From contig CM034547.1 of NCBI GenBank assembly GCA_020055645.1, forward strand, positions 6,138,001 through 6,202,000: a stretch of DNA of 64,000 nucleotides. Reading direction: 5' to 3'. Position 1 is the first letter of the stretch. Each line of letters starts with the position of its first letter. Origin of the DNA: Tomocerus qinae (lineage: Eukaryota; Arthropoda; Collembola; Entomobryomorpha; Tomoceridae). Under the pieces are notes generated by a model that did no database searches, was not told the DNA's origin, and was given only the letters and a program-made list of their open reading frames with translations. The position numbers and the translations under genes were made by a program. Shown here in pieces: positions 14,703-60,800 of the stretch.

Positions 14703-16226
14703 TTTATAATTCCTACAATTAACAGAGATGTAACTTTGTCAAATGACTGATCAGTTCTGCATTTTTCATCATACTAGCTTGCATGCATACTGTGAACATA
14801 GTACAATTTGAATTAATTCTAATATTCTAAAGCTAGAGAAAAATTTGGTTACTTTTATGTACAATTGGAACTAATCCTTCGATCCTTCCAACATGATTGG
14901 ATATGGCCATCAACCTTATTTTGAAAACGCATTTTAGCTGTTCGACACTTCCCATGGACGCTGGGATTGGCAATTTGAATTTGGCATTATCTGTAATCTG
15001 TAGACAGTTTGTCATTTTTGCAAATGTACTAAATAAAATATTAGGCATCTATCGTGAATGCGGATCCTACGAATGGGACACGCTTTTAACGAAATTGCAT
15101 CGATAAAATCATATGTTTGATTACCTACTATACTTTCTACATAAGCCAAATCAGTCTAGTAGATTCAATGCCATTTATTTTTGGCGCATATTACAGAAAG
15201 GTTTAAGAAACTTGTTGAAAACAGTTGAGGACAGCAGAAATTTAATGTTCAAGGCAGCCGACAGTTTCCCATGTAGTAAAATTGTTGGAATCCAATAATT
15301 GAAGTACTCCAAAAAAGCATTTTCTTAAGTATATATGAATTGTAAAATAAATGTTATGAATTATTTGACGTATACTCAAGTTTTAGCTATCGAAATTTGT
15401 TAAGATTCGTCGATAATGCTTATGGGTCCTCCTAATGTTCCCCCCATTCACTCATGTGCTCTCGCAGTTTACTCTAATTTTACTCTAATCACATTCATTT
15501 ATAGATCCTCCAAAAGTACATTTATAGTCCTCCAGAATTGTTGAAGGATCCTTCAATCTTTATGGGAAATTGTGTTCATAATTCTTTTTACATGCGATGT
15601 ATTCATCATTGAGTTCGAAATATTGCCCTGTTGCATGTGGAACTCTATCGACTGCCTTTCCTTGAGAATTCTTCGGTTCTCCATCATTTGGAAAGAAACT
15701 TACCTAGTAGGTAGTCTAAGTCCTAGGTAGGTGTTATAATATCTTTAATTGCTAGATGCTTTTATTACAATGATTCTAATAGTGGTCAGCTCGCGCTGGT
15801 GTCTAGAAAAATAGCTACACTCATTAATTTTTACTGCATTATCGTAGCTGACTGACTGTTTGTAAGGACAATGACCAATGTCTGTCAAGTGTAATGCAAG
15901 GTACCTTTTCTCAAATTATTTATTTTCTGCAATTAATCTAATTAAAATAAATGCAATTGTAAATGAGTACAGATAGGTTTTAAGTAGATTACTTGACACA
16001 AGTATCTGTAGCAAGTGATTGTTTTAATTTAATACTCGATTCCTATTCTTCCCATGAACGGGCACGACGGGCAGAGCTATTAACATTCTCACAAAGCACC
16101 CCTTATTGAGAGAGAAAATTATTTGGAAATGGAGAAGTTCGATAATAATACCAATTCTACTAATGGGATTTACAGTAACGAAGCATGTTCGTATCGTAAC
16201 TTAGACAGTCGCAATCTCATCTCACG
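14703..16226. other. Intergenic region between receptors 1 and 2
   Basis: Two short adjacent forward open frames (14897-15106, 69 codons; 15113-15298, 61 codons) show no family I know and no hydrophobic or motif signature, so they are not called as genes. The rest is AT-rich with no recognised repeat. Confidence 0.5.
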
Positions 16227-18203: not shown

Positions 18204-20161
18204 AAAATCATAAAGAAAAACGTAGAAATGCTAACTAAAGTTAAAAACAGCTCTGTTACACATCTACGTATTCAATATTTCATTCTCAATATCGCACAGA
18301 AAATTATTTGTAAAAAATATCATTAATAAAAGATGAAAGACAGATATTTCGGCCCAACCATGTCACCAATTGCCACATTTGTATCCACACTATCCCCTGA
18401 AAAATAGACTATTTAATTGGTCGAAAGAACTTGAAAGAAGAATGATATTCCAGTAACTTCTAATAATATCTGTATGCACATTGCACAAGTATAATCCACA
18501 CGGCAAAAGTAACCTAATTAATATTTGATTACTAATCACATTTCATCGAATCGAAAAATATGTATTTAGAGGAAAATATCTCTTCCTTAATTTGTTTTGC
18601 ATTACTTATATCATGATTGTCTATAATTATTACAATGCTCAAGAATCCCAATCCATAACGTTAATTCAACTCTACTATTTACGATCGCATGTTCATACCA
18701 CACTCTTATTATGAGGTCAATAAAATATGATGGTGTCAATCTCCATTACAGAGAATTTTGATTCAAACCACAATAATTCAATCAATACTTCTTGGTTAAC
18801 AGTATACAGTGTGCATAAAACGATTAGTATTAACCTTTAGAGTGGTACTATTATCTGTATTAAGTGTATTATGACAGATTCCAGCTCCAGAAAATCGGGT
18901 TCTAAATACCCTACCACCAATACAAATTGTACATTGTCATTTCATGACTGAAAACTTTGATGGTCAGAGACAACATATTATGTTTTGGAAAGTCTATATA
19001 AAAGCAGAACATTTTAAAGTATTACCGCCCATACAAAACTGCAACGAAAATTTCATCTTTAATCTCTTTATCTCTGTAATGCTATTTTCTGAAAGTTTAA
19101 TGAAAAATGTGGAATTAAAGTCTTTCAAATGATTTTTAGAAAACTAATAAAAAACTGTATTTTCGTTTCGTTATCCATTCTATCGTGTAACGAAAGTTTT
19201 TAAAAACACAACCGTAACCCCATACTAACTAATTTGTACATACAAATCTAACAAATCACCATTGAACAAATCTCTAGTTAGCAGATTATTATTTCTATCT
19301 GTATAATGTAAGCTTATGTTATCTACCACTATTCCTTCTTCTAATAGATAAAACACATCTCTACAATATTATTTCCGCGACAAGGGACGCTTGACAGTGA
19401 CACTTGACAATAATTCCAGTGTCAACTTTGTGTACATAGAGAACATGTCGAGACGATAAATTGATGCAGTCAACAATTTCAGACGATTTTTAATATGGGA
19501 ATAAAGTTTTGATTTTACAACCATGATGCTGGTTTCTCTTTCATTTATTAATTTCCATAAGAAAAGAAAGCTGTCTTTGCCTCGCTTTTGAAATTGAGCA
19601 AGCGACAAGCGAATAGATCAGTTGGATTTGACTGATTTATAAATGATAAAAAATGAATATTTGATCAATTATTGATCTTGAATGACTATTTTGTTCCTGA
19701 TCGACTGACAGTCAAGGTCTAAGGTCTAGCTATTTAGCCAATATATTTTACCAAACTTTAAAAATTGGTTGGTAAATATTATGATGATTGCAGAAGAGTT
19801 TGATTAAGCACCTACGCTGATTATGTTACCTCCGATTTGCATATAAAAAGGATATTTATTCTCCACAGAGAAAGCACGGCTGGAATTTGGTGTTTGGCAT
19901 TGGGGAGACTTAATTGTTAGGTCGACTATTTTCCCAGTTTACATAAGTAGGTACCTTACCCATTTGTACACATCACAAATCACAAAACAATTCATAAATC
20001 ACATCTGTTTGTTGTTTTTATAAGTACCATAAAAACGCCGAATCAGAAAATGAGAATCATAAATTGCTGCAGGTGAAAAGTCATTGAACAATTCGTGGTG
20101 AGGATAGTTAGACGTTTGTCTGAAGCTTTGGGGAATTGCAAAGATTAATTCTATTTAAAAA
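18204..20161. other. Intergenic region between receptors 2 and 3
   Basis: About 2 kb of AT-rich DNA. Short open frames on both strands have no protein-like features. No repeat was recognised. Confidence 0.55.
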
Positions 20162-22120
20162 ATGTATTTGAATAAATTGTTTGTGATTTCGATTCTAATT
20201 TCTTTAAGTTCATCTGCCGACATTAAAAGTCTCAGCTCTGTATCATCGGAAATAATTTCAACGCATTTTAATTCCTGTGATGTATTTTTTATTCATGACG
20301 GAAACAAAGAATTCGTTTCAGAAGTGCAATCAAGTCTAAAACAATTGTTTTCTCAAATACGCAGAGATCTCTTTAGTGTAAATATATACGAAGTAAAGCC
20401 AACGAATTATTTCAATCCCTTCCAATCCAGTAGGAAAATTGGGTTCCGAGACCAATGTGCAGCAATAGTTTTATTTCTCTCCGAATTAAATGAAGGCCTT
20501 GAGGAGAGGCTGGATGACATTTTATTTCCTCACCTAGGATCAATTGCTCGGCAAGATGAAGATCATTTTATTTTTGTGACACAATACGAAACAGCAGAGA
20601 GCTTGCTATTTTCAAAATTGGGAAGTAAAATCAAATACAAAATAGCCTTGTACACTGACGACAATTTCTTTGTTCGAGGAGAAACAATTTGCTTTTATTG
20701 TAACAACGGTCTACCTGTAAAAGTAAGTATCGACCTGAAAAACTTCATGAAGGAAAATTCAAAACAGGTGGAAACGTTGTTTCCAGAATTTACAAAAAAT
20801 GGGAATGGCCACACAATTCGTTTATCAAGTACAACAATAGTAAAGTTTAAAATTGAATTAGAGGAGCAGAATGGGAATTGGAAAATCAAAAGAGGATGTA
20901 CAAAACCTGTTATGGAAGAAATGACGTCGAGGTTGAACTACACATACATCGTATTTCCGTCGACTGGAAACGGGACTGGAGTACGACGAAATGGCACCTG
21001 GACTGGTTCTATTGGCGACGTTTTAAAAGGAAAAGCAGATTTGAGTGCAGCAACAAGTATAAATTTGCCGCGATTTCTTGCAGTGGTTATGACTGCTTCT
21101 TTTATGGACCAAGAGATTTCTTTCGTCACCCGCCGACCGAAATTAAGTTACTCATGGACAGCTATCTATCAACCGTTTGCCATACCACTCTGGGGATGTA
21201 TCCTGCTGGTCAGTGCTTTCGTTTTTGCCGTATTCCAACTGATTGACAAATTCGGATCGGAACCGGAAAGTGGAAAAGGATTTCAAAGGCACCCACTATT
21301 GTTTTTGACAAGTACACTGCTCGAACAAGAAATTGAATCTCCGCGCTCGGTTTCTGCCAGAGTTCTTTGTATCATCTGGTTGTTTTCAGTTCTCATTTTT
21401 GCGACACTGTATCGATCCAAGTTAGTTGGGATTATGACCTTTCCACTTTTTGAGCAAGCCCCGAAAAATTTTGAACAGTTGAGCAAGTCTACTGAATATA
21501 ATTGGGGTCTGGAAGCAGGATTAATTGGTGGAGCCTCTATCCCCTATTTCAGAGATGGTCGGGCCACCATGCGTTCTATTTACAGTAAACTTAGCAAAGG
21601 TTACGAGTCAACTTGTTTCGTAAAGGCTATGACTGACAAATTTGCGTGCATTTCGTGGAGCGGAGAGGCACGCTTTTTCCTCAGGAAGAATTTTAGCGCT
21701 TCTGAACAGCTACCTTTAGTTTTCGCTGACGATTCAGCAGCTCCGGGACAACCGGCATTCTCTATGAAAGGAAAACGCATTTGGAGAACCAATTTTGACA
21801 CAGTGATAAAATCTGCAAAGGCCTCTGGATTGGTGATGAAGTGGACAACAATGGACTTGGATGAGGAAAGACGAAAACATGTCATTTGGGAACAACTTCA
21901 TTCAACCACAAAAATCATACCAGAAGAAGGACCTTCAAAACTTCAAATCGTTAATCTTAAAGGACCCTTCTATTTATTGATTTGTGGCTGCTCTGCAAGT
22001 TTTCTTGCCTTTATTTACGAGATTTTTATTGGTTTATTCAAACGAATTCGAATTTTAAAGTTAGCCAAGATATTTTTCTCTACATGCAGATGTCGATTGC
22101 CCTCAAAACAAAGATTATGA
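20162..22120 (+). CDS. Ionotropic receptor-like channel 3 (IR/iGluR family)
   Basis: Third tandem receptor; single exon, 652 aa. Signal peptide LFVISILISLSSSADI. S1 lobe from about 240 (GCTKPVMEEMTSRLNYTYIV, then RRNGTWTGSIGDVLKGKADL); FVTRRPKLSYSWTAIYQPF before M1 (343-362); second TM about 400-424 with ATLYRSKLVGIMTF; S2 lobe with GLEAGLIGGASIPYFRDG and RIWRTNFDTVIKSAKASG; last TM 603-623 followed by a short basic cytoplasmic tail. It resembles receptors 1 and 2 over its whole length, which dates the duplications to after the single-exon state arose. Ligand unknown. Confidence 0.92.
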   Translation: MYLNKLFVISILISLSSSADIKSLSSVSSEIISTHFNSCDVFFIHDGNKEFVSEVQSSLKQLFSQIRRDLFSVNIYEVKPTNYFNPFQSSRKIGFRDQCAAIVLFLSELNEGLEERLDDILFPHLGSIARQDEDHFIFVTQYETAESLLFSKLGSKIKYKIALYTDDNFFVRGETICFYCNNGLPVKVSIDLKNFMKENSKQVETLFPEFTKNGNGHTIRLSSTTIVKFKIELEEQNGNWKIKRGCTKPVMEEMTSRLNYTYIVFPSTGNGTGVRRNGTWTGSIGDVLKGKADLSAATSINLPRFLAVVMTASFMDQEISFVTRRPKLSYSWTAIYQPFAIPLWGCILLVSAFVFAVFQLIDKFGSEPESGKGFQRHPLLFLTSTLLEQEIESPRSVSARVLCIIWLFSVLIFATLYRSKLVGIMTFPLFEQAPKNFEQLSKSTEYNWGLEAGLIGGASIPYFRDGRATMRSIYSKLSKGYESTCFVKAMTDKFACISWSGEARFFLRKNFSASEQLPLVFADDSAAPGQPAFSMKGKRIWRTNFDTVIKSAKASGLVMKWTTMDLDEERRKHVIWEQLHSTTKIIPEEGPSKLQIVNLKGPFYLLICGCSASFLAFIYEIFIGLFKRIRILKLAKIFFSTCRCRLPSKQRL

Positions 22121-27155: not shown

Positions 27156-27339
27156 AGTTTCCTAATCCCTTTTAATCCTCCAGTGAGTGAAGAAACGCCC
27201 TTTCAACTAATTAGGTACACTGGACGGAGAAAGAAGGGGAGTTTCTGGAAGTGAAAGGCTGCGTGGGCCCTGAGCAGACGTGCAGTCTCTCGCAGTCCAC
27301 TAATCCAGCTTACCCTGGAATATCTAATTCTGGAACTGC
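27156..27339 (+). repeat. Left arm of inverted repeat flanking the NHL gene
   Basis: About 184 bp whose reverse complement recurs at 29623-29800 with roughly 80% identity by eye, including identical blocks such as agtttcctaatccctt, gaaggggagtttctgga, gcagacgtgcagtctctc and ggaatatctaattctgga. It lies directly upstream of the promoter of the filamin-NHL gene. No target-site duplication was evident at the outer ends. Confidence 0.85.
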
Positions 27340-29622: not shown

Positions 29623-29800
29623 GCAGTTCCAGAATTAGATATTCCAGGTTACGCTAGATTTGTGGACTGTGAGAGACTGCACGTCTGCATATGGCTCATT
29701 CAGCCTTTCACTTCCAGAAACTCCCCTTCTTTTTTATCCAATGCAACCCCTGGAAAAGGGCGTTTCTTGCCACTGAAGGATTAGAAGGGATTAGGAAACT
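29623..29800 (-). repeat. Right arm of inverted repeat flanking the NHL gene
   Basis: Reverse-complement partner of 27156-27339 (see there). The arms enclose about 2.3 kb that contain the whole NHL gene including its promoter and polyadenylation signal. Confidence 0.85.
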
Positions 29801-30897: not shown

Positions 30898-33800
30898 ATG
30901 CAGAAGCTGTTGACGATACTGACGGTCATTGCAACTTGTAAGTTTTCTTTCATAGGGACATCGTCATTTTTTAAAAGAACCACTTTAGACGTGTCGGTAC
31001 TCGCACGGTCACCTTCAATTCAAGGTGCCATTTATCTACAATTTGAATCTGAATTATTATTAGGGTGGGGCGCCGGCCGCCCGCCCCACCCCTCCCTATT
31101 TTCAAGGTCGGGGTTTTTGAAAATAATGTAAAACATAAACGTAAATGTGATGTATTTTTTAATAAATGGAGGATTGTAAAGAATGATGAAAATATCTTCC
31201 AAGTTCATAGCCTATGCTATTTATTTAGGGATGCCGTTGGACGCTTCTCTGTGGGGCCGTGTAACAACAACGATGAGCACCACCACAATGTCAACACCGC
31301 AAAATGACGGTGTAAATAAAAGTGCACTAGTGTGTCTGGATGATTATGAGATAGCAGCATCTAGGATTCTTGATGCTAATGCTTGGGGATACTACAGCAG
31401 TGCAGCTGATGAAGAAATCACCTTGAGGGACAACAAACTGGGATACAAAAGGTGTCAAGCCACTGAAATCCTTCAAATGTACCGATAATTTAATTCTTCC
31501 TATTCTTTTTTAGAATTACCATACTTCCCCGAATGCTGGTTGATGTATCTCAGCGGGATTTATCTACAACCATTTTAGGAAAGACCGTACAATTTCCTAT
31601 TGGTGTATCACCGACAGCTTATCAAAAATTAGCCACTCCCGAAGGAGAAATGGCCAATGCTCGAGGTAAAACTGTTTTGGCACTAAACATTACATATTAT
31701 AAGTATAAATACTTCAATCCGCCTATTTCAAAATTTTTTCTTTAACCCTTTAGGCTGGCTCGGGTACTTTAGTTCCCAGCAAAATTGATTGCTATGAAAC
31801 GGACTGGGAAGTATAGTTCCCAGAAAAGGTCATATCGTTATGACGGCCTGGGGACTATACTTCCCAGAATAATATTTTCGTTACTATGGGTTGGGAACTT
31901 TAATACCCATCACTGGCAGCATCCTTACTACGGACTGGGAACTATAGTTCCCAGTCAAAGATAAAATTAGAATTTCGTGGTAAAAAATCATTATCTGTCC
32001 AATTAACTTTTAATTATCACCAAATAAATTTCGAAAATGTCCCAGCAAAGACAAAGAAAACGACGCGACGGATCGGGTTTGTTTGATGACTCAGTCAGAA
32101 AGGTCAAGCTCAAAATAAATCAGTGGTCAATCTACAAAGACTAAAAATGCAGAATCTATTAGATAAGTGCATGGATGTGTTTATCGAATTTATACTGCTT
32201 GTAAAATATACGAAGGCGAGGAATTATTAAAAGAGCTTGTCCCTAAAAATTTGGGTACGGTGGTGCCATTGTTATAGAATTAAGAGTCCAGTTCCTTTAC
32301 ATTTGGAAATCTCTGATGACTATCAAAATACATGTAAAAATTGTTTTACAACTCTTGGAATTCTGTCGAAAGTTCTTACCCGATTTTCTTGTGTGGCACA
32401 TTTTTGGAATCCTGAATATATTGTGAACCACCCCATTGTACAAAATATACGATATTTAAATTTTCTAGCAGATTTTGTCGCTTACAAAATTATAATCGCA
32501 TAAGATATATTAATGAGTAAACATATCGTATATTTTGTACAATGAGGGGGTGTACAATATATCCAGGATTCCAAAAATGTGCCACACAAGAAAATCGGGT
32601 AAGAACTTTAGACAGAATTCCAAGAGTTGTAAAACAATTTTTACATGTATTTTGATAGTCATCAGAGATTTCCAAATGTAAAGGAACTGGACTCTTAACT
32701 GAAAAATATTTTATGAATAACCATACGGTTTACACTGACAATTTTTTCAATCCCCTAAACCTTGAATTGGCTTGCAGCAAAACGCTGGAACTTTATAATC
32801 GAACTAGAAAAAGCCAGTCCTACGGACGGGAAATTATCAACACTACCCACTCCTAAAAGTACCAAATCCAATCATTTTACCAAAAAGTGAAATCTTTTCT
32901 AAGGTTGCTATTTAAAGTCCTTTTATCATCCGCGCAGCATTTGGTTTAATTTCGAAATATTGTAATTATTCTTGCGCCTGCGTACTTACACGAAGTTCAT
33001 CTTTTACATTAAAACATTATCACGGAGATTTTTCATTGCGCAGCTCCACTTTAAGATTATCTTAGGGGTATGATAGGAAAAATCCCCCCACGAAACTCGA
33101 GAAAAATTACAATGTGGAGGTGTCCACCCTTTTACGAGCCATACGAGCAACGGGGTAGTCATCGATGGAAAGATAAAAAGGTCGTGACCATCTCTACTAG
33201 AGAAGAGCACGCTCGGAATGACCGAAACTTTACCTTACCAAAGAACGGAGCAATAAATAAAACCTTTAGACTAGAACACAACGATAAAGCTCGAGGAATT
33301 GATTTAGCTGACATGCAAATGCATGATTAATTATTATGAAATCATTTGAAAGACAATAAGTTTGGTTTTCAGTATTCAATTCTTTTGTAATTCGTCGGTC
33401 AATTCGAGGAAAGATTGATCTCCTCTCTCAATTTTCTGTCATAATATCCTTAGCTAAATGTGAATTGCATTAATGTACTGTATTAATATAATATTGTTCA
33501 TGATCAATAGAATTTTAAATGTTACAATACTAAAATATTAAATTGTTATTGAGAGCTGACATTTGACAACTAAGATTAGATTATAATATCCAGGAAAAAC
33601 CGCCCGCTTTGGGAAACCTAGTATTTAAATATGTCATACGGTTTGGGTAGAGATCGTTTGTGTTAGTTGCCCATTATAAGTTCCAATAACTTATTAAAGA
33701 TACCCATAGTAACGTTAAAAAAATTAAATTCCCTGCCCAGCTGAAAGGGTTAATATCAGGAAGATATGTTAAACTATCATGAATTATCGGTGACAGGATA

Positions 33801-39854: not shown

Positions 39855-42800
39855 ATGAGCTTTACATCTGCATCTGGTTTCAAAACAAATGGATCATTCA
39901 AAGTGGCGACAAATGGAACTGCAAACAATCAAGTATGTAACTGGCAATGTGACAATAGCTATTAACTTTAGCTAATTTCTGAAAATATTTTACGGAATGG
40001 TGAAAAATAAAAGATTCGATTTAGGAATTTAAAATTAGTTATAACAAAAGTATGATTGGCAATGTCCATCAATGACAAAATTGTGTTATCCTTTGATTAA
40101 GATTCCTTTAAAAATTCAAAAATATCAATTTCTCCCATAAGTCTGCAGAATAGGAAAACGACATAATTGCGTATTCTTTAATTTAGATAGATAAACATTT
40201 CCTAGGTCAGGTACTTACCTTCATTTGGTATGTAATTAAAATAAAACAATGCAGCTACAAAACTTTTAATCGGTGAAACGGTAGACTTTGCCTTTAAGAT
40301 AATTAAAATAAATTGAATTAGGTGTTTATTAATCATTGGTATTCGAGGATCTCAAGTTAATTCGATTTAATTATTGCTAATTACGGCAAAGATTATGTAG
40401 ACAATAATACTTCAAGCTATATTTATTTGATTTTATTACATGATATTTTGCATTTGACCAATGCATTTAATTAAATAACTTAAGCATTCGGATTGTTTTC
40501 CATTTTCAGTTGATTTACAAAATCTGGAAACCCATCTACGATAGTCTATGCAACCAGCTAACAGCAGAAATGGTGAGCAAAGAAGAATTTGGACCAACAA
40601 ATAAAAACACTTATAACATGATTCCCAACAATTGATTATTTTTCCCATGCAGACTTCTTTTTAAAAAATCTTAAAAAATATTAACCCTATTGTAGATTAA
40701 TTAATTCCAAAATTTGGAAATCAATTGTTTTTTGCAGGTTTCTGCTTTTGGCATCGAAAATGCAGTACGTTTGGATGGACATCGCATTAATGGTACACCT
40801 TCAACTGCCGCCAATCATAAAATCCAAAATGGCTGCCATCACAATTCCATCGCAATTGTTGGCTACAGCTGCCGATTTCCAGGAGCAAACAATAGTGACG
40901 AATTTTGGTCGCTTTTGGCGGAAGGCGGTGATGGAATTAGTCAAGTACCACCGGAGAGACTTTTTGACCATCAAATGGACGACCCAAGGTTTACAGAATC
41001 TAAAGCTGGATTTTTAAAATGTCCCATTGACGAATTCGACGCCAAGTTTTTCGGGATAAGTCCCCGAGAGGCAGCTTACATGGATCCCCAGCAAAGACTT
41101 TTGGTAGAAGTGGCTTGGGAAGCTCTGGAAAATGCGGCCATAGACCCACACTCGTTGAAAGGGAGCAACACGGGAGTATTTTCTGGAGTTTGGACCCACG
41201 ATTACGAACGGCTGATCAACGACAACACTTCAGGCCAGGATTTTCACCACGTAGTGCTAGGAAATGCCTTCAGTGCTACATCAGCTCGGGTATCTTATTT
41301 CTTGGGCCTCAACGGTCCAAATATCGCTACTGAATCCGGTTGCTCCTCTTCAATGGTTGGCCTACATTTAGCGTGCGAAAGTTTAAAGCGGAAGGAGACA
41401 GACCTTGCCTTGGCCTTAGGGGCAAATGTAATGATAATGCAATTTCCGTTTTCGGAAATTCCTATTTTGGCAAAAGATGGGCACTGTAAAACTTTTGACG
41501 AAAGCGCGGATGGATTTGGCAGGGCAGAGGGCGTTGCCGTAGTTGTTCTTAAAAGGTTTTCGGATGCTATTCGGGATGGTGACCGTATCGTAGGCCTCAT
41601 TCGAGGCTCTGCGCTGAGTAATGAAGGAACAACTTCAAGTTTTGGCACACCTAGCAAACTCTGCCAAGAAATTGCGGTAAAAGAAGCTTTAAAAAGCGCA
41701 AGTTTAGAGCCAAATCTTGTTGATTATATCGAGGCACATGGGACGGGAACTCCTATTGGAGACCCAATTGAATTCGCTGCTTTGTCAGCAGGTTACGCAA
41801 CTGCGAATAGAGATAAACCCATGATTATCGGTTCTGTGAAGACCAATATTGGTCACACAGAATCAGCTGCTGGATTAGCGGGTTTAATTAAGGTTCTACT
41901 TTCAATGAAACACGAGGTGATACCTCGACACAGAAACTTTTCCAATTTAAACCCCAATATCAATTTAGATGCACTTCCAGCAATTATTCCTTCAGAAGCT
42001 CAGCCGTGGACTAAAAATGCTAACAGAGTAAGAATTGCTGGAGTGAGTTCATTTGGTATCAGTGGGACAAATGTACATTGTATAGTGCAAGAGCCACCGG
42101 AAAATATTTCCGGAAAACAGATGGAAAAGGGCAAAGAAAGGAGCTACCACATTCTCACAGTTTCTGCAAAAACTGATAACGCCTTAAAGGATTTGGTAGA
42201 CAAGTATATCAGATTTTTTGATAGCAACCAAACTCTCAATATTGGAGATGTTACATTTACGGCAAACGCTGGTAGAGCACATATGAAACACAGATTATTC
42301 GCTATCGCCAAAAATATTGACGATTTGAAGCTTCAATTGACCAATGTTAATAGCATTTCAATGGTTTCCAATAATGTTCCAAAAAACAAATCAAAAATTG
42401 CATTTTTATTTACCGGCCAGGGTTCTCAATATACAGGAATGGCTAAAACCCTTTACGAAACTAATATAATATTTCAAAATGAGTTTGACAAAGTTTCGCG
42501 ATTAGTCAAAAAGCAAATTGGCGTTTCTCTGACCGAGGTTTTGTGGAGCGAATCTTTCAGTACGAAGTTAGATCAGTCAATCTACAGTCAACCATCGATT
42601 TTTGCAGTAGAATATTCTCTACTAAAACTATGGGAATCATTAGGGGTAGCCCCTGATTATGTTCTGGGTCACAGTGTTGGCGAATTTGCGGCAGCAACAG
42701 CTGCAGGGATCATAAACCTAAAAGATGCGATTACCTTAGTTTGCCAGAGAAGCAAACTTGTTCAAAGCCTGCCACCTGGTGGTATGTTGGCTGTTCGCTC

Positions 42801-45800
42801 TTCTGTAGAAAATGTTTCAAAGCTATTGACAACTTTCCTTGAAGAGAAAAATGACGTCTGGTTAGATATTGCAGTCATAAATTCTTCGGAAGAAGTAGTA
42901 GTAGCAGGTGATAAAGATGTTTTGCAAATATTTCAGAATTTCTGTTTGGAAAATGGAGTAAAAGGGCAATTTCTTGCAGCAACTCACGCATTTCACTCTC
43001 GATCTATGAATGGAATTTTGGCAGAATTCAATAGTATTGCCAGTAAAATTGAATACAAACTGCCAAAATGTCAATATATTTCAGGAACAACTGGTGATTT
43101 AGAGGAGAATCTAATGGACAGTTTTTACTGGGAGAGACATGCTAGGCAATCAGTGAATTTTGCCGCTGGTATTAAAACGCTTGCAGAATGTGGCTGTCAG
43201 ACTTTTATTGAGATTGGCGCGCACCCCGTTCTGTTAGCTCTCGGGTTAACTAATTTGGGATCACTGGAGAACACTTTATGGGTGCCGTCTCTTCGAAGAA
43301 ATGAGGACAACTGGAAAACTTTGCTTGATAGCTTAGGAAAATTGTATGTTGCTGGGCATACCATTAAATGGGCGGCAATTGACTCGTCGTTCTCAAGACA
43401 AAAGTTGGAATTGCCAACGTATCCATTTCAGCGACAAAAATATTGGATAAATTGTCGTTCTGAGAAATACAACAAAATTATTCATCCACTTTTAGGGAGA
43501 AATATCTCCATTGCTGGTGGACATGATGAAGTGTACGAACACATGTGGAACTTGAAAGATATTTCTTATCTGCGAGATCATCAGGTGGCTAATATTACCA
43601 TTCTTCCCGGAGCTGGTTTTCTAGAACTTATTTTAGCCGCTGGTAAACATTTCTTTAGAAAAAAGAGTCATTCCAAATTAAGGGCACTAACAGTAGACAA
43701 TTTTATTGTCGAGTGCCCTCTTGAGTTGCAGGAAGAGAAGCTCCAGACAATCCAAACAGTGGTTAGCCCAGTGGAAGACTCTGACAATTTCTCTGTTAAG
43801 GTTTACGGATTTCAAAATCTAAACGGGTACAACAATGAGAAGGGTTGGAAACAATATGCAAGTGCAAATATATTTTTTGACAACGAAATAAGTTCAAACA
43901 AATTGAAAACTAATTTCATTTCCGATACCAAAATTCGTTGTCCAGTTGAGGTACTTACAGAAGAATTTTACAAGATTGCTCCAGAAATTGGAATATATTT
44001 TGGAGCGACCTTCCAAAGCATAGAAAAAGTTTGGAAAGGCTTTAACGAGGCCTTGGCTGGAATTCCGATTCCTTGTGGTGCAGGAAATATTAAAGATTAT
44101 ATTTACCATCCGATTGTACTCGACGCCATGATTCAAACTGTAGGTTTAAGTATTGCTGAAGTTCAAACTGACCTCTTCTTGCCCGTTGGGATTGAAAAAT
44201 TCAAAGTAATAAACGACTCCGGTGCAAAATACTTTTACGCCCACGCCATCTGGGAACAAGGAAAAACGAATGGAACGGTAAGTCTTTACAATGAGGAAAA
44301 TGTACTCTTGGCTGTAATGGAAGGGATTCGTTTAGTAAAAACATCTGTCAGCTCATTTCTCAATGTCATTAACGGACAAAAGTATATGCTACCTGATTTG
44401 TACCATGACATTTGGCGCCCAAGGGCAAGTGAAAGTCCCCTTCACTCTCGTGTAGACTTGACGGGTATTAAAAATGTTGACGAATATTTGAAAGGTGTAT
44501 TTAAAGAGGTAGAAATGGAAGGTGCGGCCAAAAATTTAGAGAACATTTGGCAATATTCACATTTATGTGAACAAATAACCGTATGTTTAATCTTGAAAAC
44601 TCTCCTTGGAATCGGATGGAAACCCGAACTGGGTTGCAGCTACGATATCAATTACGTGATTAATAGCTGTCAAGTTTTAGATAATCACATAAATTTAATA
44701 GCCAGATTTTTTGAAATTCTACAAGAACAAGGCTATCTTTCAAAATGGGTCAATAAAGATATATTCCAAATTGAATGGAAAATTGTTAAGCAATTTCCCA
44801 CATTAGAGGAAATTGATGCTGAAGAAAATGATTTAACGAACAGTATCAACCTATTGGCCAAGAAATATGGAGATCATACAATAACTAATATTACGATATT
44901 ATGCTCAAAATATATTGTTGAAGTGCTGAAAGGTAATTTGTCCGCCGTGTCAGTTCTTTTCGGCACGGAAGACAAAGACTTAAACGCGCTATCAGTGTAC
45001 ACAGAAGGTGTCGAGGTCATTTGTGCAAATATAAGCATAGCTAAATATCTTACAAGTGCATTCACAGATTTGAAAGCGGGAGGTTTAAAGGAAGGTTCGA
45101 TTTTACGAATAGTAGAAGTAGGAGCTGGAAGTGGGGCAACTTCTAAGGAAATTATAAAAGGTCTTCAGTCAGCTGGAATTTCTTTCCAGTACACGTTCAC
45201 AGATATTTCTCCCCACTTTTTAGAAAGAGCCAAAATTGAATTCTCCGAAATTGAAAGCATTGAGTACAAGTTATTAAATATTGAGAACGACCCCTCTTTA
45301 CAAGGATTTACGCCATTTCATTACGACGTAGTTGTAGCAGCCAACGTTATACATGCTACCAAAAACCTAGAAGAATCCGTGTCAAATATTCGAAAACTTC
45401 TCACTCCTTTGGGGATTTTTGTATTGCAAGAAATTTTAGGACCTAAAAAGCAAATTGATTTTATATTTGGAATTCTAGATGGTTACTGGAGATTTAAAGA
45501 TTATAATTTACGAACGTCACATCCTTGTGTTACTCAAGATGTTTGGGATAAGGTCTTAGTCGACTGCAATTTTACTCAGTCTGTATTACTGTCTCAGCCT
45601 TATGAATTGACCTCGGTCATTGTTTCTCGAACAATGCCATACACATCTGTAAAACCGTTGTACAATCTAGAAAAGAGAGTTTCTTGGGTACTTGTATGCG
45701 ACGATCATGGTTTGTACGAACAATTAAAAACAAAACTTGAACTTGTTGGCCATCACGTACAGCTGATTAAACATAAATCAAATAAATCCCAAGAATCGAG

Positions 45801-48800
45801 TTGTGCAAATGCAGTTCAATTAGATTTGTGCAACTACGGAGTGGTAGAACAGTATTTTGAGAATTATTATTGCACATTCGATATAGAAGGAGTTGTTTAC
45901 TTGTCTGGGTTAAACAAAGTAGATGGTAATGACACTCAAGAAGATTGGTTGTCTCCAGCCCTGAATATATGTAAATACATCGTGGGCAACACCCGTGTTA
46001 AAACTCGTTGTTACTTTGTCACAAGAGGGGTTCACTATATTGGTGACCAAGGGTCTGGTGACCCTTCTAAGGCTACTATGTGGGCAATAGCTAAATGCAT
46101 GGGAAATGAGCTACCAGAATTGACAAGCATTTGTATTGATCTCGATCCTGACGAAATCAATCTCGAAGATGAGAGCACCCAAATTTTTTTCGAATTGTTC
46201 AGTGGTAATGAAACTCAGGTTTGTTATCGAAATAAGAAAAAACATGTCAATCGTATTACCACTTTTCCGACACCTTTGATCCCAATAACATTGCCCAAAG
46301 GACGCTACAAGATTGCCATTCCCACAACAAAGAAAATTAATGATGTAACTTTCAGAGCTGTGGGAAACGAGTCTCTGGCATCTGCAGAGGTTGAAGTAAT
46401 GGTTAAAGCTACAGCTCTGAATTTCAGAGACATTTTTGTTATCCTTAAACCTCCTATGTTTAAATCTCTTTTCGACGCTGTGGGCACGGATTTTGCTGGT
46501 ATAGTCTCCAATGTGGGATCAGCTGTTACAAATTATAAAGTAGGAGATGAAGTATTTGGTATCTCACAGGCTAGCAGCGCTGCCAGCCATGTCGTTGTGA
46601 ATTCTGCAATGATTTTACCAAAACCTTCGACTTTTTCTTTCGCAGATGCAAGTACCCTTCCTTCTGTATTTTTAACTGCTTATTACTGCTTAGTCACCAC
46701 AGCCAATCTGAAACCCAAGGAGACCATTTTAATTCATGTAGCATCAGGTGGGGTAGGACTGATAGCGATTCAAATAGCCCAGCACATAGGGGCAAACATT
46801 ATTGCTACGGCAGGGAGCAGGAGGAAAAGGGCCTATTTGAGGTCAATAGGGGTTGACCATGTTTTCCATTCTAGAGATCTTAGTTTTGGTGAGGAAATTG
46901 ACAGAGTTACAGAAGGTCGAGGGGTGGACATGGTTCTCAACTCATTGACTGGTGTAGGATTTAAAGAAACAACCCTGAAAATTTGTGCTCAGAATGCTCG
47001 TTTTGTTGAGATGGGAAAAGTAAACATTTGGCAACCAGAGGATGTTAAAAATTTGCGGCCAGATGTTCTGTACACAATTGTTGATCTGGAAAAGGTTCAC
47101 CCTGAAGAAATGCGAGATCTTGTTAGCACTATGGGAAGCATGTTTGCCTCTGGAACATTTTTGCCTCTACCCTACTCGAGATTTGAAATTGTACACATTA
47201 AGGAAGCATTAAATTATTTTCTTAAAGCTCAGCACATTGGTAAAGTTGTGGTGGCCATGCCTGAAATCCGTGAAACAAACGGAATACAATTTACGAATGA
47301 ACTAATTTTCAACAATGTGAGTACTTATCTTATCACAGGAGGTTTGGGTGGAATTGGGCTGGAAGTTGCTAAATGGATGGCTGACTGTGGGGCGAAAAAT
47401 CTTGTTCTAGTAGGCCGAACCCCTCCAAATGATAAAGTTCTTAGCGTTTTGAATAATTTACGAAGCAGAGGATGCAGAATTTTGGTGAAACAGGTTGATG
47501 TGGGCGATATCAGTCAGTGCAGAACACTTTTTGAAACAATCAAATCACAATTACCTCCTCTAAGGGGAGTTATTCATTCCGCGGGTGCACTCTCTGATGG
47601 CGTTTTGGTAAACCAAACTTGGGAGAAATTTCAAACAGTGTTCAACGCTAAAGTTCAGGGAGGATGGAACCTACACAATATGACCAAGCACATGCCGCTG
47701 GAACATTTCGTTATGTTTTCTTCAATGGCAGCTATATTTGCACCAATGGGACAGAGTAACCATGCAGCGGCAAATATGTTTTTAGATTCGCTGACCCACT
47801 ATCGCCATTCTTTGGGTCTTCCCGCTCAAACGATAAATTGGGGTGCGTGGTCAGAAGTTGGCGCGGCTACAAATACAGTGTACGGAAACGAAGGTATGTA
47901 TGGTGTGAAGCCTTTTGCCCCTACACAAGGTATTGCGACTCTGAAATATGTAATGACTCATCCGAACGTAAATCAAATCGGTGTAATTCATTTGGATGTA
48001 TTGACTTTTAAAACGTATTTTAGTCATCTCGGCCAGTTTTTAATTGAATTATGTGAAAATAAATCTACTACGCATGCAGACACACAAAATTTAGTCCAAT
48101 CAGAAGCGTTTTGGGCAGAAATCAGCACTTTGTCATTAGACGACCGTATTTTACATTTTAGAAATCTTTTGAAGTCAATAATTCGCCAAACACTGAAAAT
48201 CCCAGAGTCTGAGCCTTTAGACGAATACCAAAGTTTCAATGAAATGGGTCTTGACTCACTGATGGCGGTTGAAATGCGAAACAAGCTTCAGTTTATCGTT
48301 GGGAAGAAGTTGACTCTCAGTGGTAGTTCTTTGCTGGATCATCCCACGATAAATAGTTTAAGTAAGCATTTGGCGGAGTTGACAATATCTTTGGATTCCT
48401 CCTGCAAAGGAAATCTAAATAATAACAACAATATTCCATTATCCAACAATATCTCTGAAATTGAATCATTGATAAGACATGACACAAACTTGCCACCCGA
48501 ATTAGATAGCAATATCCTCACGAACTCTGTAAAACCTTCGGAAATCAGAAATGTACTACTAACAGGATCAACAGGTCATTTTGGTGCTTATATTCTGAAG
48601 GATTTATTAGCAAAGATCTCTCAACCGGTAAATGTTTTTTGTCTGGTCAGAGGAAAATCCCTCGGAAGTGCAAAGAAAAGGCTGGAAAATAATTGTAAAA
48701 AGTTTAATTTGATTAACGACATGGATTTTTCTCGGGTAACTATTATTTTAGGCGATATCACAGATTCTCATCTTGGGCTATCAGATTCTGATTATGAAAC

Positions 48801-49713
48801 CCTGTCTAAAGATATCGATGCCATTTTCCATTTGGCGGTCAAAGCCAATCACGTGGAAAAGTACAAAGTATCAAAATCCAATGTCGATATTAGATCAGTT
48901 AATGTTCTCGGCACAATGAACGTATTAAAATTCGCCGCGAATTTCAAAACAAAGAGAATCTTTTACACGACTTCTTATACAACGGCCAATAAGCTATCAC
49001 ATGATGGTTACATCTCAGAAGAGCTTCCTTCAGATGATAACTTTGGTGATGGTATACCCTTTGGCTATGCTCTAACAAAATTTGCTAGTGAAAAGATATT
49101 GAAACGTGCTAATGACAAAGGCATTCCTTGCGTGGCAATAAGATACCCCACTTTCGCAGGCCACAGCCAAACGGGACATTTTACCGTAGATACGAATTTT
49201 ATGATCAATTTATTTTTCATTTCCTGCCGTATGGGAGTATTTCTAGACTTGCCTTTCGGCTATTATGCTATTCCTATTGACGTCGCTTCCAAACTGACTC
49301 TAGAATTGTGTTTCAATGATAATACCGAAACAGGGTTGTATAATATAGTTCAACCTGTGCCACTGCACTCTAGAGATTTTGTTGAAGTGGCTGAGAAAAG
49401 AGGAATAGAGTTAAGAGTGTCAGATGGAAGGGAATTTTACAGTCGTCTAACCGAAGAAAGCAGACATGATTCTTTTCTCCAATTTTTTATTGATGCGTAC
49501 GGAGAAAATTTAGAGTCAAAGGCAAACTTCTCATGTCCTGCAAAAACTAATGGGACAGATGAAAAAGTTATGTATAAAATTAGTGACAAGTTATTAAAAA
49601 TAATTCCCGATTTCACAAACACAGTTCCTCCCACAAACACCCTTCTTGATCTCTACATGGAATATGCTGACAAGGCTGGCATTTTAAATAATTTTGGCAT
49701 AAAATTCAAATAA
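39855..49713 (+). CDS. Highly reducing type I polyketide synthase with terminal reductase (KS-AT-DH-MT-ER-KR-ACP-R)
   Basis: Megasynthase that condenses malonyl units and reduces, dehydrates and C-methylates the chain. Exons: 39855-39932 (ATG, 26 codons), probable in-phase cassette 40510-40572, and one giant exon 40738-49713; 3017 aa without or 3038 with the cassette. Domains with motif positions: KS, Cys in ESGCSSS (41341), His in EAHGTGT and NIGHTESA (41854); AT, GHSVGE (42673), HAFHS type (malonyl); DH, His in DHQVANITILPGA (43579), DAMIQ (44122); C-methyltransferase, EVGAGSGATS (about 45118); ER, HVASGGVGLIAIQ (about 46735); KR, GGLGGIG (about 47340), with GQSNHAAAN (His at 47761) where Tyr is usual; ACP, GLDSLMAVEM (Ser at 48256); thioester reductase, TGSTGHFGAYIL (about 48562) and YALTK (49066). 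R-domain release predicts an aldehyde or alcohol. AATAAA at 49871. The huge exon is unlike the neighbouring split genes; retroposition or transfer from an intron-poor source is possible. Confidence 0.95.
40510..40572 (+). CDS. Probable optional 63-nt exon of the PKS
   Basis: Within the PKS intron, TTTTCCATTTTCAG precedes a 21-codon open stretch (LIYKIWKPIYDSLCNQLTAEM) followed by the donor GTGAGC. It starts and ends in phase 0, like the flanking exons, so inclusion or skipping keeps the frame. It would lengthen the linker before the KS domain and contains no known motif. Confidence 0.5.
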
Positions 49714-51086
49714 ATTATTAATCTCGTAAAGTTGATTTAATTTAAATTATTCTTTGAGATCATAGATAACTTATTCTTCTTCTACCTGTATAATGATTCA
49801 GGAATCTGTCGATTTGTATGCATTTTGTTAAAAATGATGTCTTATTTATAATTGGTAAGTATTAATTATTAATAAATGATGCAAAACATTATCCTTGCCA
49901 CATTAAAATTAAAAGACAATAAAATATTATAGAATTTTGTGTTGAGATCACTTTTATCTCATTTAACATTTATTTTCCTCCTGCCCTATATACCCTAATA
50001 ATGCCGATCTTCTCAAATCATTTCCTAAAGGCTTAATTTTATTCCAGTTTTATAAATACAAAAGAATGCATCCAATCCGTTCTCCAGTTGAATTACATCA
50101 TTCAATTACGAATGATTTAGTACAAAAGCGACACCCACGCTTCATTGTATCTTTCCAGCACCAGACAGGCACCTGCTCAATATTTGCATTTGGTAGATAC
50201 TACACTCCATACACTCATTCTTGTTTTTATGATTTTCGAAACATGTACACATAGAGTACATCTATAGCCATAGGATGACAATTTCTGTTATAGCAATGTC
50301 TACTCTTATTAATTCACAATGTTCTAATGTCAGTCAGTCACAACTCCATGAAACATGGGATAGAATAATGGAAGCTCACGTGGAGTGATTTAGGTTAAAT
50401 ACATCAATTGTCTACTTACATATCAATTATAGCAAGTCATAGGAGATACCAACAGCATAAATTATTGATTTTATTTTCTAATTCTTCTATTTGTTTTCCG
50501 CTGGCTGTGTCAACGATTTCACTTACAAATACTTTATATGCCTATAATTAAAGAAATAATAATAATTCAAATATTGTCATTATACCATAGTATTTGTCTA
50601 ATTTACACAACGTCATCATAAGTGACAAGAATCCATAGATGGGCAATATATAGACTAATTGATTTAGGGAGAAAATACGTTGGGATATGATTTGAATGCT
50701 ATTTTTTGTTACACAAAATTTTTACAACTGCCTGTTTTGCTTTTTTTAAATCTTTAAAAAGAAACCAAATATTACCTTAGTAGAATTTTATGTTTATGGC
50801 ATAAACATACGCTGAATAAGACGATGGCGATAAAACGGTTATAATTTTGCTATATTATTCACAGTATTCCATTTTTCTGTCCATCTATGTTTTCATGAAC
50901 CTATATAATGCCTATAATAATTTGCGGTGCATATAAATATAGTCTTTAATTGAGCGATGCATATATATCCAAAAATGCTTTTAAGCAATTTATGTAGTTT
51001 ATCAAATAAACATGCCATATCCGCATGTTCCCTACAAGTGCATCTAGCAACAATTTTTTGTTTTCAGGCCATCAGCTATAATATTA
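49714..51086. other. PKS 3' region and intergenic DNA
   Basis: AATAAA signals at 49871-49876 and 49918-49923. The remainder is AT-rich with no gene recognised. An unlocated signal-peptide exon of the next receptor may lie near its end: an acceptor TTTTCAG at about 51067 leads into the frame used at 51087. Confidence 0.5.
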
Positions 51087-57884: not shown

Positions 57885-60800
57885 ATGGTTAATGTAATTA
57901 ATCGTAAGATTATTCTTCGTCGAATAACAAATATCTTAATTATTGAACTTGCAATTCTACTTCAAAACAGCATACAATTGGCTGAAAGGAAATCGCCAAT
58001 TGGTATTTTTAATGCTTTGGTTCATTACACAATATCACAAAATGCAGAATTCCTTCTCATTCTCGAAAATTCGTCAGAAATTGGTACAATTCTAAATACA
58101 AAAATCTATTTTAAATGTAATTAAAGTTAAAATGTCAAAATATTAAAATGCTGCTCATAAATTGGAAAAAAGTCAGGAATATTCATTACTGTTATTATTA
58201 ATTTTTGTGATTTATCGAACTATTCAAGATTCCTTACAATGTTTTTAAAAATGCATATTAAAACAATAGAATTATAATTAAAACCAACAAAGCACACAAC
58301 GGGAAAAATGAGCCCAAACAAAAAAAAATTAAAGCAATCTCGTTCCCAGTTATTAAAAAAATTCAAGATAATATTATTTTCTTGTAGAATACTACGTTTC
58401 CTTTGGTCATCCTTTGGCTTGGTGCTGGCTTTACGAGTTTAATCTTGAAAATTATCAAGGCCAATTGATTTTTAATGACAACAGTAGTTTCACTGTTAAT
58501 TTAATAGCGGAGCTCAATAATTCAACCAACTTTGTAAGTTCCACTGTAATTAATCTAGTATTTGGTGTCACTCACAAGCTAGTCATTACCAAAACGTTTT
58601 TATAGATATTTTCTAATATTAATAGTGTATTTTTATCTAAAGTTGAACCCATTCGCCAAAGAAAATTCATCGTCCCTAAAGAATTCAAAAACCTTCCACA
58701 TGCCATGGCACATGCATTTGTTTATTTGCCTACCTTCGAAAAATCTTTTTAAAAACATTTCAAAGTCTGCTCTGTCGTCATTATCACTGACTCTGACATC
58801 TCACGTGTTCGCAGTTGTTGACGAAGCAATTTTCGAACTTTATGCTATCAAAAATGAAATTTTGGTAACCCAGTTTGTTCAGGATGTTAAATATTCAACT
58901 GAAGATGGTGCCATTAAATTTTTATACACTCTAAAGCAAGATTCTGTGCGACGAAGAAATCTCCGGGGACAGACAATCGTAGGAATGGCTCTTGTAAGTT
59001 TACAAATTCAGAATCAAAAAATTCTGTGCTAGTCAAATAAAATGTCATGTCTATGCATACTGTAGGATGAAAAATATAATTCAGCAGCTGCCAAGCTTAA
59101 CAAAGATGGGAATCGTTTTGAACCAGGACCTTCAGTACACTTTTTCCACGATATGAGAGATTATCTTAATTTCACGTAATAATTAAAAAATATTTCACAA
59201 ACCAAAATCTGCATAATCAAAACTTATTAATTTTTTTTGAAAATAGCGAATCAAGCATGCTTGTTAATAGCTCATCCCTTAAGCTGACTAGTAGAAACAA
59301 CTCTGTAGATTATTCATTAAGGCAAGTAATCGTTTCAGAAAAAAACTTTGGCACAGAAACTTTTCTTCAGACAACAGCAGCACATCAGAGGTAATAACTA
59401 ATTAATTTACCATTTCAGAATATCTCATTAGTACAATATCTTTCTCAAGGGCACATTCTAGAAATTGTATATAGGGGTACTAATTTCTAAAAATGAGTAA
59501 CGCATAAATAAAACAAAGCCCTTACCTTAATACTAATTTATTTGATTCAATTTATGATAAGCATAGGTACTAAGTGTTATTCGAATTATTTCGAATTATT
59601 TCGAATTTATTCGAATTATTTCGAATTTATTCGAATTATTTCGAATTTATTCGAATTATTTCGAATTTATTCGAATTATTTCGAATTTATTCGAATTATT
59701 TCGAATTTATTCGAATTATTTCGAATTTATTCGAATTATTTCGAATTTATTCGAATTATTTCGAATTTATTCGAATTATTTCGAATTATTTCGAATTTAT
59801 TCGAATTATTTCGAATTTGTTCGACTTATTTCGAATTTGTTCGACTTATTTCAATAACCCCGTTACACCTTTTACATTGAATTGAGTGCATCGTGCAGGT
59901 ATTATGAATTATGAATAATAATTCTACATTCAGGGCAATGATCTATTTTGAACAACCTCCCTACGGATCAATAAGGAATGTGTTGATTTCTCCATTTAGT
60001 AAACGTATTTGGTTGTGCCTTTTTCTTACTTGGATCGTTATCTTTATAACTCTCAAATTCTCTTTGCGAATATATAAATTCTCAGAAGGGGCTACTACGG
60101 ATACTAGAAGACAAGTGACAGAATTTGAAAAAGAACTTGGATTCTGCATTCTTCATACTGGATGCCTTCATGGTACTGAAATGAACGTATGGGATTTTAT
60201 TTAAAAGTCAATTCCTTAATTAAAATAGACTCTACTTTAGGGTGGTCAGGATTTGTAATGATGGAATCAAATTATTTGAAAGTAATATTTTTCGTGTCAT
60301 CTATGATGAGTATTGTTATCTACAATTCCTACTCTGCCACTTTTGTCTCTCGCTTAACTACAGAAAAACCTCCCATTCAATTCTTTCAGCAAATCTTGCA
60401 AAATGACTTTACTCTGGCAATTCACAAACAATCTCAAAATTTGCAGAATATGATACAGGTATAGGTAAACCAATCTAGGTAAAAAGTCCTTTGTGGGGTT
60501 GAAATAATTTGTAATCAAAATTTGAATGATAAACGTAGAATATGAATATTACATCGAAAATACAACTCGTGTCCACAGAAGAAGAAATTCAGATTCTCAA
60601 GAACAAAAGAATAGCCCTGGTTTCTTATCCCGACAAATTCAAGTCTGCAATTAGCGAACTATCCTATTCTGAAAGTTACTTATGTACACATTTTCAATCC
60701 CTGCCTGTGGACTCAGTTATCCCATCAAAAATTGCGAATTTCATCAGGAAAGGCAGTGAATTCAAGGAACTTTTTAATGTTAGGTAAAATGGCGGAAAAT

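What the first reader, a model, noticed from the sequence alone, without database searches (positions are those of the whole stretch)
39855..49713. Animal-genome highly reducing PKS that ends in a thioester reductase
A complete eight-domain megasynthase (KS-AT-DH-MT-ER-KR-ACP-R) lies between ordinary animal genes and close to split host-type exons. Most known animal PKS/FAS-like enzymes end in a thioesterase or lack a release domain. A C-terminal NAD(P)H-dependent R domain with TGSTGHFG and YxxxK predicts release of a methyl-branched reduced chain as aldehyde or alcohol. With a malonyl-type AT, C-MT and ER it could make a methyl-branched lipid-like defence or signal compound by itself. The product and biology appear open.
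Basis: partly seen in the sequence, partly recalled or inferred. Interest (0 to 1): 0.88.

Follow-up and report, generated by a model that had tools for sequence, protein, structure and literature searches.

The report
Bacterial-type polyketide synthase in arthropod genome
An arthropod, probably a springtail, carries an intact giant enzyme of bacterial type that should build a methyl-branched, saturated chain and release it as an aldehyde or alcohol, which makes it a candidate, not yet tested, for the maker of the branched wax alcohols that some springtails wear.

Summary
Window 39855-49713 encodes an intact 3017-aa, eight-domain synthase, KS-AT-DH-MT-ER-KR-ACP-R, with one host-type intron (39933-40737). 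It sits among split animal genes and shares their base composition, so contamination is unlikely. Catalytic motifs are present; a ketoreductase oddity (Tyr to His) recurs in related bacterial modules that carry a methyltransferase.

By similarity it is not an animal FAS or AFPK. The closest proteins found are bacterial C-methylating modules (33-37% identity; KS up to 51%). The R domain resembles bacterial thioester reductases (MxaA fold), nearest among cyanobacteria to a heterocyst-glycolipid-type ACP-reductase. Horizontal acquisition is likely; the donor is unresolved, and eukaryotic genomes could not be searched.

Acquired type I PKSs in springtails, and R-ended KS enzymes in arthropods, are in print: a new member of a known kind. 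New is a testable link: the architecture predicts 2,4,6-polymethyl alcohols, the skeleton of cuticular lipids of two springtails (Anurida maritima ester, Xenylla maritima methyl ether). My searches showed no gene for them. That the host is a springtail is inferred; expression and product are untested.

The parts
39855..39932 (+). exon 1 of the PKS gene (26 codons, start codon)
   Evidence: ATG...CAA followed by GTATGT; phase 0 into exon 2
39933..40737 (+). intron, GT-AG, phase 0
40510..40572 (+). possible cassette exon (21 codons, phase 0 on both sides; TTTTCAG before, GTGAGC after)
   Evidence: sequence only, no transcript
40738..49713 (+). exon 2 of the PKS gene, 2991 codons and stop
40843..41940 (+). 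KS (ketosynthase); Cys, His, His motifs present
42403..43356 (+). AT (acyltransferase); GHSVGEF, HAFH (malonyl-type, meaning recalled)
43483..44346 (+). DH (dehydratase); His (HxxxNxxxxP) and Asp (HPIVLDA) present
44839..45621 (+). C-MT (C-methyltransferase), nearest solved structure CurJ C-MT
46384..47253 (+). ER (enoylreductase), GGVG nucleotide site
47320..47856 (+). KR (ketoreductase), TGGLGGIG; catalytic Tyr replaced by His as in bacterial C-MT modules
48166..48372 (+). ACP, GLDSL phosphopantetheine site
48550..49620 (+). R (thioester reductase), TGSTGHFG, YALTK
49871..49876 (+). AATAAA signal downstream of the stop

Best explanation
This is an intact, host-integrated, iterative highly reducing polyketide synthase of bacterial type in an arthropod genome, most likely a springtail, most likely acquired horizontally. 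Inferred mechanism: the AT loads malonyl units; the KS extends an acyl starter; in some or all cycles the C-MT adds a methyl from SAM to the alpha carbon; KR, DH and ER reduce the beta carbon fully; and the C-terminal R domain uses NAD(P)H to release the chain from the ACP as an aldehyde or primary alcohol. The predicted product is a saturated chain with methyls at positions 2, 4, 6 and so on, and a C1 aldehyde or alcohol. Shown: gene structure (from sequence), domain order, motifs, linkage to animal genes, bacterial-type relatives. Inferred: activity, iteration, starter, chain length, methylation pattern, biological role, host identity.
For: Domain order and motifs (NCBIfam thioester-reductase model 173 bits, below its 213-bit cut-off). 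5' intron and single open frame. Animal genes on both sides; PKS GC 0.393 and GC3 0.343 against 0.350-0.420 and 0.321-0.412 in six neighbouring gene sets. Solved structures: whole protein Mas 871 bits, CurL 721, LovB 523, FAS 478, EcPKS1 417; KS alone CurL 399, LovB 273, and no entry named animal FAS or EcPKS among the best 60 of 85. Collinear bacterial modules running through DH, MT, ER and KR (L009, L010, L011; L044 = L009 by Pfam). C-MT nearest CurJ. R nearest MxaA R in sequence and fold; nearest cyanobacterial R proteins are ACP-R proteins in a cluster with PfaA-, PfaB- and PfaD-like genes in the one locus scanned, the domain layout of HglB, needed for glycolipid aglycones (PMC8064123, passages). 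KR His shared with bacterial C-MT modules.
Against: KR Tyr to His and DH Gly to Asn leave some doubt about full reduction. No transcript, expression or product data. The R domain is distant from every bacterial R seen (33-35% at best), so its own history may differ. Of the six bacterial PKS proteins scanned with Pfam (L001, two L002 pieces; L042, L043, L044) none had both MT and R. The KS sits on a long branch (1.25) with no trustworthy sister. No fungal or other eukaryotic genome collection could be searched, so a fungal, amoebal or other protist donor is not excluded.
Confidence: 0.82

Rival explanations
1. Same enzyme class (so not exclusive of the best explanation), but the product is a short or medium methyl-branched polyketide aldehyde or alcohol used in defence or signalling, not a wax lipid.
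For: Springtails are known for defence compounds such as sigillins and pyridopyrazines (named in PMC10825826, passages). R domains can release aldehydes. The gene alone cannot fix chain length.
Against: No tailoring gene was recognised beside it, though only some of the flanking ORFs were scanned. The nearest cyanobacterial R relatives look like HglB, which serves glycolipid aglycones.
Confidence: 0.35
2. It is a fungal-type highly reducing PKS acquired from a fungus or another eukaryote such as an amoeba, with a reductase end.
For: LovB, a fungal highly reducing PKS, is among the hits for the whole protein and the MT. Fungal PKSs ending in NAD_binding_4 exist: PKS-NRPS hybrids and one non-reducing PKS in Verticillium (PMC9495618, passages). 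Springtails are reported to carry fungal genes (PMC5490193, passages). PKS16 (Dictyostelium, organism recalled) is among the KS hits.
Against: KS similarity is higher to bacterial than to fungal enzymes (CurL 399 bits, LovB 273, psoA 267). C-MT is closer to CurJ (155 bits) than to citrinin synthase (100) or LovB (90). Both are similarity, not trees.
Confidence: 0.15
3. [quoted passage not shown]
For: A few R-ended arthropod KS enzymes were reported in the AFPK survey (PMC10764717, passages).
Against: FAS and EcPKS1 score far below bacterial PKSs. The C-MT has a SAM-binding motif. Nearly all of the coding region is one exon.
Confidence: 0.03
4. It is an assembly contaminant or an unexpressed relic.
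For: No expression data. A very long single exon is unusual for an animal gene.
Against: 5' intron with consensus-like splice sites, host-like GC, animal genes on both sides within one window, and no stop or frameshift in 3017 codons.
Confidence: 0.04

Closest known systems
Bacterial C-methylating fully reducing PKS modules (e.g. L044/L009, a cyanobacterial 2511-aa protein)
   Same: KS-AT-DH-MT-ER-KR-ACP in the same order, 34-36% identity over KS to ACP; KR His shared
   Different: No R domain in L044; bacterial gene without intron
Cyanobacterial KS-AT-DH-ER-KR-ACP-R protein (L042, 2588 aa)
   Same: single module ending in R
   Different: no C-methyltransferase; KR has Tyr
HglB/HetM-type ACP-thioester reductase of the heterocyst glycolipid cluster (name and role from PMC8064123, passages; assigned here by domains and gene order)
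   Same: ACP followed by R; nearest R among 292 cyanobacterial genomes, 33-35%
   Different: stand-alone 505-544 aa protein beside PfaA/PfaB/PfaD-like genes
Mycocerosic acid synthase (Mas)
   Same: best whole-protein hit in the PDB (871 bits); makes 2,4,6-polymethyl chains (product recalled)
   Different: no C-MT and no R domain; methyls come from methylmalonyl-CoA (recalled)
Springtail horizontally acquired PKSs (Folsomia candida, 30 type I clusters; OXA62418.1)
   Same: type I PKS in a springtail, acquired by transfer (PMC5490193, PMC10764717, passages)
   Different: sequence and domain order of those proteins were not available here, so orthology is untested
CpFAS1 of Cryptosporidium
   Same: eukaryotic type I synthase ending in an R domain; its R reduces C20-C26 acyl-CoA (PMC2995488, abstract)
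   Different: 25-kb gene with an acyl-ACP ligase loader and three elongation modules; not an animal

Membership tests
Type I highly reducing, C-methylating PKS | KS-AT-DH-MT-ER-KR-ACP on one chain with catalytic motifs | tested here: met
   KR Tyr is His, as in 5 of 5 related KRs with a detected C-MT upstream; activity itself untested
Type I highly reducing, C-methylating PKS | iterative use of the module | not testable with these tools
   inferred from the stand-alone single module
PKS/NRPS terminal thioester reductase (R) domain | extended SDR fold with TGxxGxxG and YxxxK | tested here: met
   PF07993 153 bits, over its cut-off; TIGR01746 173 bits, below its 213-bit cut-off; Tyr188 and Lys192 invariant in 15 aligned R domains; MxaA R best sequence and fold match
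Animal FAS / AFPK | KS closest to animal FAS | tested here: not met
   no entry named animal FAS or EcPKS among the best 60 of 85 KS hits; whole-protein FAS 478 and EcPKS1 417 bits against Mas 871; by similarity, not by tree
Animal FAS / AFPK | FAS-like domain layout ending in TE | tested here: not met
   ends in R; no thioesterase among the 25 Pfam families shown of 27
Fungal highly reducing PKS | KS in the fungal reducing clade | tested here: inconclusive
   LovB 273 and psoA 267 bits against CurL 399; no fungal collection to build a tree
HglB/HetM ACP-reductase | stand-alone ACP-R protein in the hgl cluster | tested here: not met
   fused to a PKS in an animal genome; only similarity of 33-35% in the R domain
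Springtail horizontally acquired PKS | host is a springtail | tested here: inconclusive
   arthropod-like context (tandem single-exon genes with ligand-gated-channel domains); no genome or name given

The most novel reading that the evidence does not exclude
The enzyme is the missing polymethyl wax alcohol synthase of springtails. It extends a fatty acyl starter by three to six malonyl units, methylates each from SAM, reduces fully, and releases the 2,4,6(,8,10,12)-polymethyl alcohol through its R domain. This would be a bacterial-type PKS domesticated to waterproof an arthropod cuticle, with methyls from SAM and not from methylmalonyl-CoA as in insects (the insect route is recalled).
Probability: 0.3. 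Interest if true: 0.8.

Novelty: new member of a known kind. Interest (0 to 1): 0.5.

Why it matters
Springtail cuticles carry a 2,4,6-trimethylhexadecyl ester and a 1-methoxy-2,4,6,8,10,12-hexamethyl alkane, which the discoverers assigned to the fatty acid pathway (PMC11321324, passages read); the passages I read name no gene for them. An enzyme whose domains predict that skeleton and that C1 oxidation state makes the question directly testable by expression in yeast or a Streptomyces host, or by RNAi. It would show that a bacterial-type megasynthase was recruited for a structural animal lipid, and that the methyl source differs from the insect route (recalled).

Tried and rejected
AFPK/FAS origin: rejected on similarity, not by a tree.

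Degenerate KR: considered because of NHAAAN. Not favoured, because 5 of 5 KRs with a C-MT detected upstream carry His while 24 of 26 without one carry Tyr; the other two His cases lie on 446- and 487-aa pieces at locus edges where upstream domains cannot be seen, as do five of the 24 Tyr cases.

Specific donor: the KS tree (40 rows with the window; 19 of 37 inner branches starred) gave a long window branch (1.25) and a sister, a Streptomyces plasmid PKS, at 89/82 only, also long-branched.

Biosynthetic gene cluster around the PKS: none recognised among the ORFs scanned; FMN-dependent dehydrogenase x2, NHL-repeat protein, PhzF-like x2, F-box-like, E2 and ligand-gated-channel genes are ordinary host genes.

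Reading the gene upstream (38.8-39.5 kb) as glycogenin-like and the gene downstream (51.5-53.9 kb) as an ionotropic receptor: by eye only; Pfam gave no support.

Viral relatives: one scan with six peptide patterns, none. Plasmids: 3547 records matched the whole protein; I fetched three of them and saw no module with both MT and R there (L048: R and no MT motif upstream of its KR).

Host identity could not be settled: no genome is held and no eukaryotic collection is available.
Full report
WHAT WAS CHECKED. The reported gene is real and complete. Exon 1 (39855-39932) joins exon 2 (40738-49713) across a GT-AG phase-0 intron of 805 bases, giving 3017 residues. The mechanical ORF start at 40714 lies inside that intron. 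The open stretch of 2991 codons is far beyond chance, log10 P about -98. A further possible exon, 40510-40572, is phase 0 on both sides and would add 21 residues; only a transcript can decide.

DOMAINS. Pfam gives KS, AT, DH, MT, ER, KR, ACP and NAD_binding_4 (R) in this order. NCBIfam gives a thioester-reductase hit of 173 bits, below that model's 213-bit cut-off. Motifs by alignment to bacterial relatives: KS ESGCSSSM, EAHGTGT, KTNIGH; AT GHSVGEF and HAFH, the malonyl-type signature (meaning recalled); DH HxxxNxxxxP and HPIVLDA; MT VEVGAGSG and AANVIHAT; ER GGVG; KR TGGLGGIG; ACP GLDSL; R TGSTGHFG and YALTK. Two departures from textbook: DH Gly to Asn, and KR Tyr to His (NHAAAN). PKS C-MTs are said to use a His-Glu pair (PMC9821293, passages); I did not establish which residues these are here.

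THE KR HISTIDINE. Among 31 distinct KR motifs that a pattern found in the 50 loci then held, 7 have His and 24 Tyr. His occurs in 5 of 5 with a C-MT detected upstream in the same frame. Of 26 without one, 24 have Tyr; the two His cases lie on 446- and 487-aa pieces at locus edges where upstream domains cannot be seen, and so do five of the 24 Tyr cases. The His is therefore more likely a mark of this module type than decay, and it ties KR and MT to one lineage. The pattern may have missed other KRs, and the loci are not independent samples.

RELATIVES. Against solved structures the whole protein scores Mas 871 bits, CurL 721, LovB 523, FAS 478, EcPKS1 417. With the KS alone: CurL 399, PKS16 302 (Dictyostelium, recalled), LovB 273, psoA 267, and no entry named animal FAS or EcPKS in the best 60 of 85; the first-listed row, 7zma at 581 bits, has two matched stretches. 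The C-MT is nearest CurJ (155 bits) against citrinin synthase 100 and LovB 90. In 292 cyanobacterial genomes, 60 had a match at E of 1e-100 or better; only the best two candidates per genome were scored. The three best run collinear from KS to KR or ACP (L009, L010, L011) at 35-37% in that call and 33-35% by BLASTP; KS identities reach 51%. L044 (the same gene as L009) is KS-AT-DH-MT-ER-KR-ACP without R; L042 is KS-AT-DH-ER-KR-ACP-R without MT. A KS tree of 40 rows places the window on a long branch (1.25) among bacterial sequences; its sister L048 is long-branched too and joins at 89/82, and the tool warns that such places are unsure. No eukaryotic sequence could be added, so origin by transfer is favoured by similarity and by the literature, not proven by a tree.

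THE R DOMAIN. By sequence its nearest solved relative is the MxaA R domain (120 bits); a fatty acyl-CoA reductase comes last of 11. Tyr188 and Lys192 of the stretch are invariant, and Ser156 at least 90% conserved, in 15 aligned R domains. A model (mean pLDDT 76.6, pTM 0.81, with weak stretches at 114-130, 160-187 and 341-355) matches MxaA R first (TM 0.76 and 0.78). In the same 292 genomes, 42 had a match at E of 1e-30 or better; the ten best come from open frames of 505-544 aa, 33-35% identical, and align from the ACP into the R domain. In four fetched loci this protein lies next to a KS protein (cut by the edge in one), a 1106-1114-aa KS protein and a 559-592-aa protein. For L061, the only one scanned, these are PfaA-like KS (below that model's cut-off), PfaB-family and PfaD-family, with a short-chain dehydrogenase after the ACP-R protein. 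HglB, also called HetM, is described as ACP plus thioester reductase, required for the glycolipid aglycones (PMC8064123, passages); that the product is a long-chain alcohol is recalled. An R domain ending a eukaryotic synthase, CpFAS1-R, reduces C20-C26 acyl-CoA (PMC2995488, abstract).

HOST. Upstream are three tandem single-exon genes with ligand-gated-channel domains (two of them 38 and 42% identical to the third), two PhzF-like genes (75% identical), two split FMN-dependent dehydrogenase genes and an NHL-repeat gene. Downstream are an F-box-like gene (Pfam score below cut-off) and a ubiquitin-conjugating enzyme. Two further split genes directly beside the PKS have no Pfam match. GC in 2-kb windows runs from 0.28 to 0.42, and the PKS windows (0.35-0.42) lie in that range, at its upper end; PKS coding GC (0.393) and GC3 (0.343) lie within 0.350-0.420 and 0.321-0.412 of six neighbouring gene sets. 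This is an arthropod-like genome. A springtail is inferred because horizontally acquired type I PKSs are reported there (PMC5490193, PMC10764717, passages) and PKSs are said to be very few in arthropods (PMC10764717). Diplurans also have large intronless receptor families (PMC6938034, passages). My estimate for springtail is about 0.75.

MECHANISM AND PRODUCT. The domain set predicts loading of malonyl units, alpha-methylation from SAM, full beta-reduction and reductive release. A chain so made has methyls at C2, C4, C6 and an aldehyde or alcohol at C1. Springtail cuticles contain 2,4,6-trimethylhexadecyl 2,4,6-trimethylhexadecanoate (Anurida maritima; all S) and 1-methoxy-2,4,6,8,10,12-hexamethylnonacosane (Xenylla maritima). 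The authors assign these to the fatty acid pathway and assume that the alcohol is a reduction product of the acid (PMC11321324, passages). Three methylated extensions of a C10 starter would give the first alcohol exactly (my arithmetic). No enzyme for them turned up in the listings and passages of my searches. This is the boldest reading that the evidence allows; I give it 0.3, because chain length, starter, host and expression are unknown.

AGAINST. KR and DH departures; no expression evidence; R only distantly related to any R seen. The Anurida ester needs both an acid and an alcohol, so a second release route or an oxidase would be required. The Xenylla chain would need a 17-carbon starter, or unmethylated cycles on an odd-numbered primer. 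In the survey of 23 species the polymethyl ester was found in one species only, and the ether is told of one, as far as the passages read tell.

PRIOR ART. Folsomia candida: 36 biosynthetic clusters, 30 of them type I PKS, most cluster genes called transferred (PMC5490193, passages). Arthropods: very few PKSs, one named from Folsomia, and a few sequences with R termini in the AFPK survey (PMC10764717, passages). Bdelloid rotifers also deploy acquired NRPS/PKS genes (PMC11258130, passages). I saw no description of this exact architecture in an animal in the listings or the passages opened, but supplementary domain tables could not be read.

VERDICT. A sound observation; the frame moves from animal PKS/FAS to a bacterial-type PKS domesticated in an arthropod. 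A new member of a known kind, worth following because it makes an open question of springtail wax chemistry testable.

Noticed in passing
window 40510-40572: Possible 21-codon cassette exon in the PKS first intron, phase 0 on both sides with plausible splice signals.
   Followed up: partly
window 32280-32455 and 32523-32698: Near-perfect inverted repeat, arms of 176 nt 97% complementary with 67 nt between, between exons of the second FMN-dependent dehydrogenase gene; looks like a foldback or MITE-type element.
   Followed up: partly
window 27230-27339 and 29623-29732: A 110-nt repeat in inverted orientation, 90% complementary, on both sides of the NHL-repeat gene.
   Followed up: no
window 6187-7053 and 8013-8825: Tandem pair of PhzF-like genes, 75% identical.
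   Followed up: no
window 12627-22120: Three tandem single-exon genes with ligand-gated-channel domains; the first two are 38 and 42% identical to the third.
   Followed up: no
window 59580-59852: 20-bp tandem repeat, 14 copies.
   Followed up: no
L009, L010, L011, L012, L017 (C-MT seen upstream); L014, L021 (edge pieces): Bacterial KR domains in C-methylating modules carry His instead of the catalytic Tyr (5 of 5 with detected C-MT, 2 of 26 without); this may be a general mark of such modules.
   Followed up: partly
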